Assembly: GCA_012520725.1 (NCBI GenBank)
Contig: JAAYNQ010000035.1
Span: forward strand, 1-46,944
DNA: 46,944 bases
Direction of reading: 5' to 3'
DNA from: Syntrophomonadaceae bacterium
Lineage (GTDB): Bacteria > Bacillota > Syntrophomonadia > Syntrophomonadales > Syntrophomonadaceae
The notes below the pieces were generated by a model, which was not told where the DNA came from, did not search any database, and worked only from the letters and a program-made list of their open reading frames with translations. Position 1 is the stretch's first letter. Every line of letters begins with the position of its first letter. The position numbers and the translations under genes were made by a program. Of this stretch, positions 40,119 to 41,310 are shown in pieces.

Positions 40119-40529
40119 TTACCGGCCTTTTTTCTTCTTTTTGGACCTGGAAAAATTTATTTTTCTGATTTTGGCAAATGGCATGTAATAATCTTTCAAT
40201 TCACTGGAAGCAAAACGCTGGGCTGCTATCAGATTGGCATCTGCATCCAAACCCCAAACTGAAACTAAAGCGGCTTCCTCCCGGTCAACCTGAATTTGCA
40301 CTTCGTATTCTCTTAGCAAATCCACTTCGAAACTCTTGAAATCGGCACTTAATGGCGAAACAGTCAGGGTTTCGCGGGATACCTCGGATTTGCTTCCGTC
40401 TATGCTATAAAGAGTGATTGTAGCTGTTAAATTGTTGGTGGAACTATTATTTAAAACTTTTACCATTACGCTTAACGCCGGGTTGCTGACGCCATTTTCC
40501 ACTGGACCGGTGGTAAATAATTTGGCCAT
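40119..40529 (-). CDS. Small beta-rich hypothetical protein with basic tail
   Basis: This 136-residue protein starts at an ATG with AAGGGG upstream. The alternating pattern (NPALSVMVKVLNNSSTNNLT, ATITLYSIDGSK, ADFKSFEVDLLREYEVQIQV, EAALVSVWGLDADANLI) suggests an Ig-like or CARDB-like beta sandwich, with a strongly basic C-terminus (RSKKKKKGR). There is no signal peptide or membrane segment. I do not recognise a named family. Proteins of this general look occur in Firmicutes as spore or surface-associated proteins of unknown role. It stands alone, flanked by the mini-element and the 120-bp repeats. Confidence 0.65.
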   Translation of the reverse strand: MAKLFTTGPVENGVSNPALSVMVKVLNNSSTNNLTATITLYSIDGSKSEVSRETLTVSPLSADFKSFEVDLLREYEVQIQVDREEAALVSVWGLDADANLIAAQRFASSELKDYYMPFAKIRKINFSRSKKKKKGR

Positions 40530-40605
40530 GTCATTCCCCTTTCGATTTGTATTTATTGTTATTTATTCAATTGAAAAACAATATATTACACTACATTAAA
40601 ACCGG

Positions 40606-40978
40606 TGGCCCGCCTGCCCGTTTAGCGAAATGCCGTAGCATGCCCGTGCGGGCGGTCGAAGACCGCCCCAACAATCGCCTCAAGGAACCCCAAAATGCGG
40701 GGTAAAATCGTAGGGGCTAGCTGCGCTGGCCCGCCGGTCATTCACCGAAATACCGTTGCAAATACGGCGGGCAGTCGAAGACTGCCCCAACAATCGCCCC
40801 AAGGAACCCCAAAATGCGGGGTAAAATCGTAGGGGCTAGCTGCGCTGGCCCGCCTGCCCGTTTAGCGAAATGCCGTAGCATGCCCGTGCGGGCAGTCGAA
40901 GACTGCCCCAACAATCGCCTCAAGGAACCCCAAAATGCGGGGTAAAATCGTAGGGGCTAGCTGCGCTGGCCCGCCGGT
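40606..40978. repeat. Three tandem ~120-bp palindromic repeats
   Basis: Units lie at 40606-40726 (121), 40727-40845 (119) and 40846-40966 (121), with a 12-base start of a fourth (TGGCCCGCCGGT). Units 1 and 3 are nearly identical; unit 2 differs in its first 45 bases. Each unit can fold into three hairpins. The first has an 8-bp stem with a GAA loop (GGGCGGTC-GAA-GACCGCCC at 40650-40668). The second is ACCCC/GGGGT around AAAATGC. The third is GGGCTAGC-TGC-GCTGGCCC. In units 2 and 3 the first stem has A-T in place of G-C (GGGCAGTC/GACTGCCC), a compensatory change. No ORF with a ribosome binding site is present. These resemble dispersed intergenic palindromic repeats of Clostridia; the function is unknown. 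Confidence 0.88.
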
Positions 40979-41029: not shown

Positions 41030-41092
41030 ATGTAAAGCGTGCTTGACATCTCCTTTATTAGCGCTATAATAGATATAAAGCATGCTTTACAT
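41030..41092 (+). promoter_or_regulatory. XRE promoter flanked by two operator-like palindromes
   Basis: A strong promoter, TTGACA (41043-41048), 16 bases, TATAAT (41065-41070), lies 40 bases before the XRE start. Two related 20-base near-palindromes flank it: ATGTAAAGCGTGCTTGACAT (41030-41049), covering the -35 box, and ATATAAAGCATGCTTTACAT (41073-41092), at the transcription start. Their starts are 43 bases apart, about four helical turns. The arrangement suggests autorepression by the XRE protein binding both sites. Confidence 0.75.
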
Positions 41093-41109: not shown

Positions 41110-41310
41110 ATGCAAAACCGATTGGCAGAACTACGATCAAAAAGCCGGATGACCCAGGAGGAACTGGCTATCAAGGCCGGGGTTTCCAGACAGACCATTA
41201 TATCGTTGGAAAAGGGTAAATATAACCCCTCTTTGCAGTTGGCCTTCAAATTGGCCCGAATATTCCAAATGCCTGTTGAGGAGATATTTATTATGGAGGA
41301 GGTTGATTAA
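41110..41310 (+). CDS. Small XRE-family regulator
   Basis: This 66-residue protein is a single Cro/CI helix-turn-helix: RLAELRSKSRMTQEELAIKA, then GVSRQTIISLEKGKYNPS and LAFKLARIFQMPVEEIF. It matches the YozG-like class of minimal XRE repressors, often paired with a small membrane protein, as here. AGGAGGG (41099-41105) precedes the ATG. The next gene starts 1 base after the stop, with its ribosome binding site inside this gene. Two palindromes at the promoter are the likely binding sites. Confidence 0.93.
   Translation: MQNRLAELRSKSRMTQEELAIKAGVSRQTIISLEKGKYNPSLQLAFKLARIFQMPVEEIFIMEEVD

What the first reader, a model, noticed from the sequence alone, without database searches (positions are those of the whole stretch)
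40606..40978. Tandem 120-bp repeats with compensatory base change
Three units fold into the same hairpins, and unit 1 carries G-C where units 2 and 3 carry A-T at one stem position, on both arms. Covariation in a non-coding tandem repeat argues for selection on structure, in RNA or single-stranded DNA. Tandem arrangement of such long intergenic palindromes is unusual and may be a non-coding RNA array, a recombination hot spot or a protein-binding array.
Basis: seen in the sequence. Interest (0 to 1): 0.65.

Follow-up and report, generated by a model that had tools for sequence, protein, structure and literature searches.

The report
REP hairpin array between two genes
The three 120-base repeats are a small local array of short "GTAG" palindromes that occur about 240 times in this bacterium's genome, a known kind of transposase-linked repeat (REP/BIME) found here in a syntrophic Bacillota lineage where I found no earlier description of it.

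Summary
In detail: three units (119 and 121 bp apart) at 40603-40978, with the same hairpins and a G-C to A-T exchange on both arms of one stem. Each unit is a pair of inverted REP-type hairpins. Type B (+ strand) is GTAG-GGGC[TAGC]TGC[GCTG]GCCC; type A (- strand) is GTTG-GGGC[GGTC]TTC[GACC]GCCC. The host genome has 243 such hairpins (control pattern 0), almost always B forward and A reverse, about 60 bp apart, between genes. This is the architecture of GTAG REPs and BIMEs/REPINs.

Stem covariation is strong genome-wide at two other pairs.

The likely driver is a group-4-type RAYT transposase. None was found in the host, but its sister species keeps a truncated copy with a B and an A hairpin inside its reading frame. 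Other genomes hold 16 RAYT genes with such an internal inverted pair, against 0 of 32 control genes; REPs inside subclass 2.4 RAYT genes were already published (PMC6006769). New member of a known kind; no locus-specific function is shown.

The parts
40603..40614 (+). 3' half of a type B REP that bounds the array (CGGTGGCCCGCC)
   Evidence: sequence; same letters but one as the 3' half of the full B copies
40650..40672 (-). type A REP, copy 1: GTTG-GGGCGGTC-TTC-GACCGCCC; G40654-C40664 is the pair in question
40687..40703 (.). spacer hairpin ACCCC-aaaatgc-GGGGT, specific to this array as far as seen
   Evidence: none of the other arrays' A-/B+ spacers printed shows it
40710..40732 (+). type B REP, copy 1: GTAG-GGGCTAGC-TGC-GCTGGCCC
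40769..40791 (-). type A REP, copy 2, with AGTC/GACT (A40773-T40783)
40806..40822 (.). spacer hairpin, second copy
40829..40851 (+). type B REP, copy 2
40890..40912 (-). type A REP, copy 3, with AGTC/GACT (A40894-T40904)
40927..40943 (.). spacer hairpin, third copy
40950..40972 (+). type B REP, copy 3, last of the array; a single B REP lies in the matching intergenic region of the sister species G003
40119..40529 (-). flanking gene, 136 aa, no Pfam or NCBIfam match; the array lies upstream of it
41110..41310 (+). flanking gene, 66-aa Cro/C1-type regulator (HTH_3); the array ends about 70 bp before its promoter

Best explanation
The feature is a local tandem array of a GTAG-tagged REP family, i.e. 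a BIME: type B REPs forward and type A REPs in reverse, alternating about every 60 bp. Shown: the hairpins, their feet, number, alternation, genome-wide spread, covariation, and a lone B REP in the same intergenic region of the sister species. Inferred: single REPs or B-A pairs were spread by a RAYT (TnpA-REP) of the group 4 / subclass 2.4 type that cuts single-stranded DNA at the GTAG foot. That RAYT has since been lost from this genome or is missing from the assembly. At this locus a REP pair with a mutated foot (GTTG) was then multiplied by local duplication or unequal recombination. The G-C to A-T pair probably arose once, by paired mutation or a template switch within the hairpin, and is shared by units 2 and 3. 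The array is most likely parasitic or neutral repeat DNA; any effect on the two divergent flanking genes is unproven.
For: 243 hairpins in the genome with up to one mismatch, control 0. Of 231 classified hairpins in the fetched stretches, 106 of 108 A-B neighbours within 200 bp are inverted to each other while A-A and B-B neighbours are direct; spacing peaks at 58-63 bp. Stem 8 bp, loop 3, GTAG directly at the foot: meets the published REP rule (GTAG/GTGG 0-2 nt from a paired stem of 7-20 nt, loop 2-5; PMC6006769). Resolvable arrays lie between genes: 21 co-directional, 11 convergent, 4 divergent, as reported for GTAG REPs (PMC3733652). Spacers are about 90% alike within an array but 59-66% between arrays, so arrays grew locally. 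All three A copies here share the rare GTTG foot (8 of 263 raw hits). Sister species G003 has a truncated RAYT with a B-like hairpin forward and an A hairpin in reverse inside the ORF (L244). 25 of 32 other genomes with the GTAGGGGC hairpin match the RAYT profile A1 at E <= 1e-4, and 16 of 26 ORFs of that set hold an inverted REP pair.
Against: No RAYT of this clade is found in the host genome; its one Y1_Tnp fragment (contig C80) sits next to a different repeat. The window's A feet read GTTG, not GTAG. No transposition has been shown. The array lies upstream of two divergent genes, the minority position for REPs.
Confidence: 0.82

Rival explanations
1. The repeats are kept because the hairpins act in RNA (transcription terminators, mRNA stabilisers or small RNAs) or as protein sites (for example for gyrase), so selection on structure explains the covariation.
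For: Stem pairing is kept through double changes genome-wide; intergenic location with few divergent gaps; REPs in E. coli have such roles (own knowledge).
Against: No Rfam match, no terminator-like site called in the array, no consistent orientation to co-directional neighbours (12 same, 9 opposite), this array lies upstream of both neighbours, and three of four sister species have no such REP before the regulator gene.
Confidence: 0.2
2. The compensatory change is a mutational by-product: during replication one arm of the hairpin is copied from the other, or a block is converted between units, with no selection on structure. This concerns the base change, not the identity of the array, and is compatible with the best explanation.
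For: Units 1 and 3 differ over 121 bp only at the two paired positions; units 2 and 3 share the block; template switching is known to make such changes (PMC8794818). At this pair uncompensated changes are common in the genome.
Against: Does not by itself explain why GTAG feet and stems stay intact across about 240 dispersed copies and why diverse stems recur at fixed places in RAYT genes.
Confidence: 0.55
3. An integron-like attC array or a CRISPR-like array.
For: Tandem imperfect palindromes that fold as single-stranded DNA.
Against: No room for cassettes or varying spacers between hairpins (about 37 bp, near-identical within the array), feet are GTAG and not GTTRRRY in most copies, and the family is dispersed over dozens of loci. 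Integrase and cas genes were not searched for.
Confidence: 0.02

Closest known systems
GTAG REP families and their dimers (Di Nocera et al. 2013, PMC3733652)
   Same: GTAG at the foot of a short G+C-rich stem-loop, high copy number, units in opposite orientation close together, mostly between co-directional or convergent genes
   Different: that survey names Proteobacteria, Cyanobacteria, Chloroflexi and the PVC group as hosts of GTAG repeats; here the host is Bacillota (genus-mate MAG labelled Syntrophomonadaceae). Two stem classes, A and B, in fixed opposite orientation
BIMEs / REPINs of E. coli and Pseudomonas
   Same: inverted REP pairs repeated as tandem mosaics, thought to be mobilised by a RAYT
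   Different: sequence and host; no cognate RAYT found in this genome
TnpA-REP / RAYT subclass 2.4 = group 4 (Quentin et al. 2018, PMC6006769)
   Same: RAYT genes with REPs in frame inside the gene, as in L244 and the 16 genes
   Different: [quoted passage not shown] here there are two, inverted, about 125 nt before and 62 nt after the HuH codons, mostly with the same stem. Membership of these RAYTs in 2.4 was not tested with that paper's models

Membership tests
GTAG REP | GTAG or GTGG tetranucleotide 0-2 nt 5' of a stem of 7-20 bp with loop 2-5 nt, G+C-rich base | tested here: met
   family: GTAGGGGC in 181 of 263 raw hits, stem 8, loop 3. In the window the three B copies have GTAG, the three A copies GTTG
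GTAG REP | high copy number, dispersed in the genome | tested here: met
   243 matches, control 0
GTAG REP | mostly intergenic, seldom between divergent genes | tested here: met
   21 co-directional, 11 convergent, 4 divergent, 3 inside ORFs, 36 at ends of contigs or fetched stretches and unresolved; this window's copy is one of the divergent ones
BIME / REPIN | two REPs in inverted orientation as the basic unit, in mosaics | tested here: met
RAYT-linked REP system | cognate RAYT gene in the same genome, flanked by or holding the REPs | tested here: not met
   none in the host; a truncated one with B and A hairpins in sister species G003. PMC3733652 notes species where it may have been lost
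RAYT-linked REP system | RAYT binds and cuts the REP at the foot | not testable with these tools
   needs protein and DNA in vitro
RAYT subclass 2.4 (for the A1 clade of relatives) | REPs inserted in frame within the transposase gene | tested here: met
   16 of 26 ORFs with both hairpins, 0 of 32 other Y1 ORFs
RAYT subclass 2.4 (for the A1 clade of relatives) | match to the subclass 2.4 sequence model | not tested
   model not at hand; one A1 protein scores 79.8 bits against NCBIfam REP_Tyr_transpos (cut-off 80)
Structured non-coding RNA family of Rfam | match above gathering score | tested here: not met
   no match in the window

The most novel reading that the evidence does not exclude
In this RAYT clade the gene itself carries its substrate: an inverted REP pair at two fixed places around the catalytic HuH motif, with the same stem within a gene but different stems between genes. 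The fixed B-forward/A-reverse polarity of the genomic arrays would mirror that internal pair, so that REP pairs and transposase evolve together through the gene's own hairpins.
Probability: 0.25. Interest if true: 0.6.

Novelty: new member of a known kind. Interest (0 to 1): 0.33.

Why it matters
It places an abundant GTAG REP/BIME family in a syntrophic Bacillota genus, where it probably explains many of the assembly breaks, and shows that the covariation noticed by eye is a property of the whole family rather than evidence for an RNA. It also points to a RAYT clade that carries inverted REP pairs in its own reading frame, a good system for asking how a transposase and its hairpin substrate stay matched.

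Tried and rejected
Rfam search of the window: nothing. Terminator reading: no terminator-like site in the array. Link to the host's only Y1_Tnp: rejected, because that fragment has two copies of another repeat, AAAAGAACCGTCCCCTCGTCACGC, just upstream. Search for a relic of the right RAYT in the host with the sister's protein: only chance-level matches (E 0.24 and worse), mostly over the last, REP-adjacent residues of the query. Test that REPs near each RAYT match its internal hairpin better than those of other genomes: inconclusive, too little DNA held. REPs with the same stem outside the RAYT ORFs in the RAYT loci: seen in only a few (L263, L273, L274, L290). RNA folding of whole units: z -0.7 to -2.8, weak, because composition alone gives stable folds. 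attC and CRISPR readings were set aside on anatomy alone; I did not search for an integrase or cas genes.

Full report
What is there. The stretch 40603-40978 holds three tandem units, 119 and 121 bp apart. Units 1 and 3 are identical over 121 bp except for two positions, G40654/A40894 and C40664/T40904, which face each other in a stem; unit 2 differs in its first part but shares the A-T pair with unit 3. It is one event in the window, not a repeated one, because units 2 and 3 share the block.

What the units are made of. Each unit contains two hairpins of one design, in opposite orientation. On the + strand lies GTAG-GGGC-TAGC-TGC-GCTG-GCCC (type B). On the - strand lies GTTG-GGGC-GGTC-TTC-GACC-GCCC (type A, with AGTC/GACT in units 2 and 3). 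A third hairpin, ACCCC/GGGGT, lies in the joining spacer and was not seen in the other arrays' spacers that were printed. The array begins with the 3' half of a B copy and ends with a B copy.

A genome-wide family. The pattern occurs 121 times on one strand and 122 on the other in the host genome with up to one mismatch, and never in the reversed control. I fetched 60 stretches around hits and classified 231 hairpins in them and in four earlier loci: 127 B, 93 A, 11 other. A and B neighbours are almost always inverted to each other (106 of 108), A-A and B-B neighbours direct, and spacing peaks near 60 bp. Spacers are about 90% alike within an array and 59-66% between arrays, with 50-52% for shuffled spacers, which fits spread of single units followed by local duplication. 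The rare GTTG foot shared by all three A copies here fits that too. About half of the clusters lie at the end of a contig or fetched stretch, and many BLAST places are at contig ends, so the arrays probably break the assembly.

Covariation. I selected copies on the outer constant letters only and left the inner 11 nt free. Over 123 unique sequences the four inner pairs are 79% standard, against 60% (sd 1.4, maximum 63%) when 3' letters are dealt out anew, and 26-44% when slid. Two pairs carry this: A-T/G-C, and T-A/C-G/G-C. These mostly reflect a few subfamilies, so the number of independent events is small. Because an inverted repeat can correct itself by template switching (PMC8794818), covariation in a DNA palindrome is weaker proof of selection than in an RNA gene.

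Surroundings and relatives. The array lies between a 136-aa gene without family match and a divergent Cro/C1-type regulator. In the sister species G003 (whose Y1_Tnp places are identical to those of G450, the genome of Syntrophomonadaceae MAG AS10tlH2TH_281) the same intergenic region has one B-type REP and other sequence; three further species of the genus have no such REP before the regulator. In a sample of 398 genomes of the phylum only the host and G180 have exact copies of the pattern; G003 was not in that sample. Elsewhere the same hairpin turns up in Oscillospiraceae, Coriobacteriales, Acidobacteria, Myxococcales and Anaerolineae MAGs, a patchy spread.

The transposase. The host's only Y1_Tnp match is a fragment at a contig end, next to another repeat. 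Genomes with the GTAGGGGC hairpin often have small RAYT genes of another clade (profile A1; 25 of 32 genomes at E <= 1e-4). In 16 of 26 such ORFs there are two GTAG hairpins, forward about 125 nt before and in reverse about 62 nt after the codons of the HuH motif, with the same stem in 14; none of 32 other Y1 ORFs has them. G003 keeps a truncated RAYT of this clade with a degenerate B hairpin forward and an A hairpin in reverse, the polarity seen in the arrays. REPs in frame within subclass 2.4 RAYT genes were reported in 2018 (PMC6006769), so this part is an extension: two places, inverted, matched within a gene. The host itself has no detectable gene of this clade.

Most likely mechanism. 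Shown: anatomy, number, polarity, spread, covariation, presence or absence between species. Inferred: past mobilisation by a group-4-type RAYT acting on single-stranded DNA at the GTAG foot, then local duplication. Not shown: any present activity, any effect on the flanking genes.

Verdict. An ordinary, well-supported REP/BIME array, new for this host lineage as far as the searched literature goes, with a worthwhile side lead on RAYT genes that carry inverted REP pairs.

Noticed in passing
window 41030-41092: Inverted repeats ATGTAAAGCGTGCTT / AAGCATGCTTTACAT around a perfect TTGACA-16-TATAAT promoter upstream of the Cro/C1-type regulator; GTAAAGCnnGCTT pairs are kept in four sister species (L293-L296), so probably the regulator's own operator.
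   Followed up: partly
L262-L291 (RAYT ORFs), e.g. L264 and L265: RAYT genes with an inverted pair of GTAG hairpins inside the ORF at fixed distances on either side of the HuH motif, stems matched within a gene and different between genes.
   Followed up: yes
L031 / L212 (contig C80, start): Fragment of a different RAYT at a contig end, with two copies of AAAAGAACCGTCCCCTCGTCACGC just upstream; possibly another REP family.
   Followed up: no
L293, upstream of the regulator gene: In sister species G003 the matching intergenic region holds imperfect tandem repeats of the type CCCACAATGTAGTAACGATTTGG, unrelated to the REP array.
   Followed up: no
L132 4478-4659: Four exact B-type REPs with a strict 52-bp period in a Coriobacteriales MAG.
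   Followed up: no
L242 (G015): A RAYT in the same family of bacteria with GTAG hairpins of another stem (GGGACGATG/CATCGTCCC), suggesting a separate REP family there.
   Followed up: no
window 40119-40529: 136-aa protein without Pfam or NCBIfam match; a closely similar sequence lies at the same place in sister species G003.
   Followed up: no
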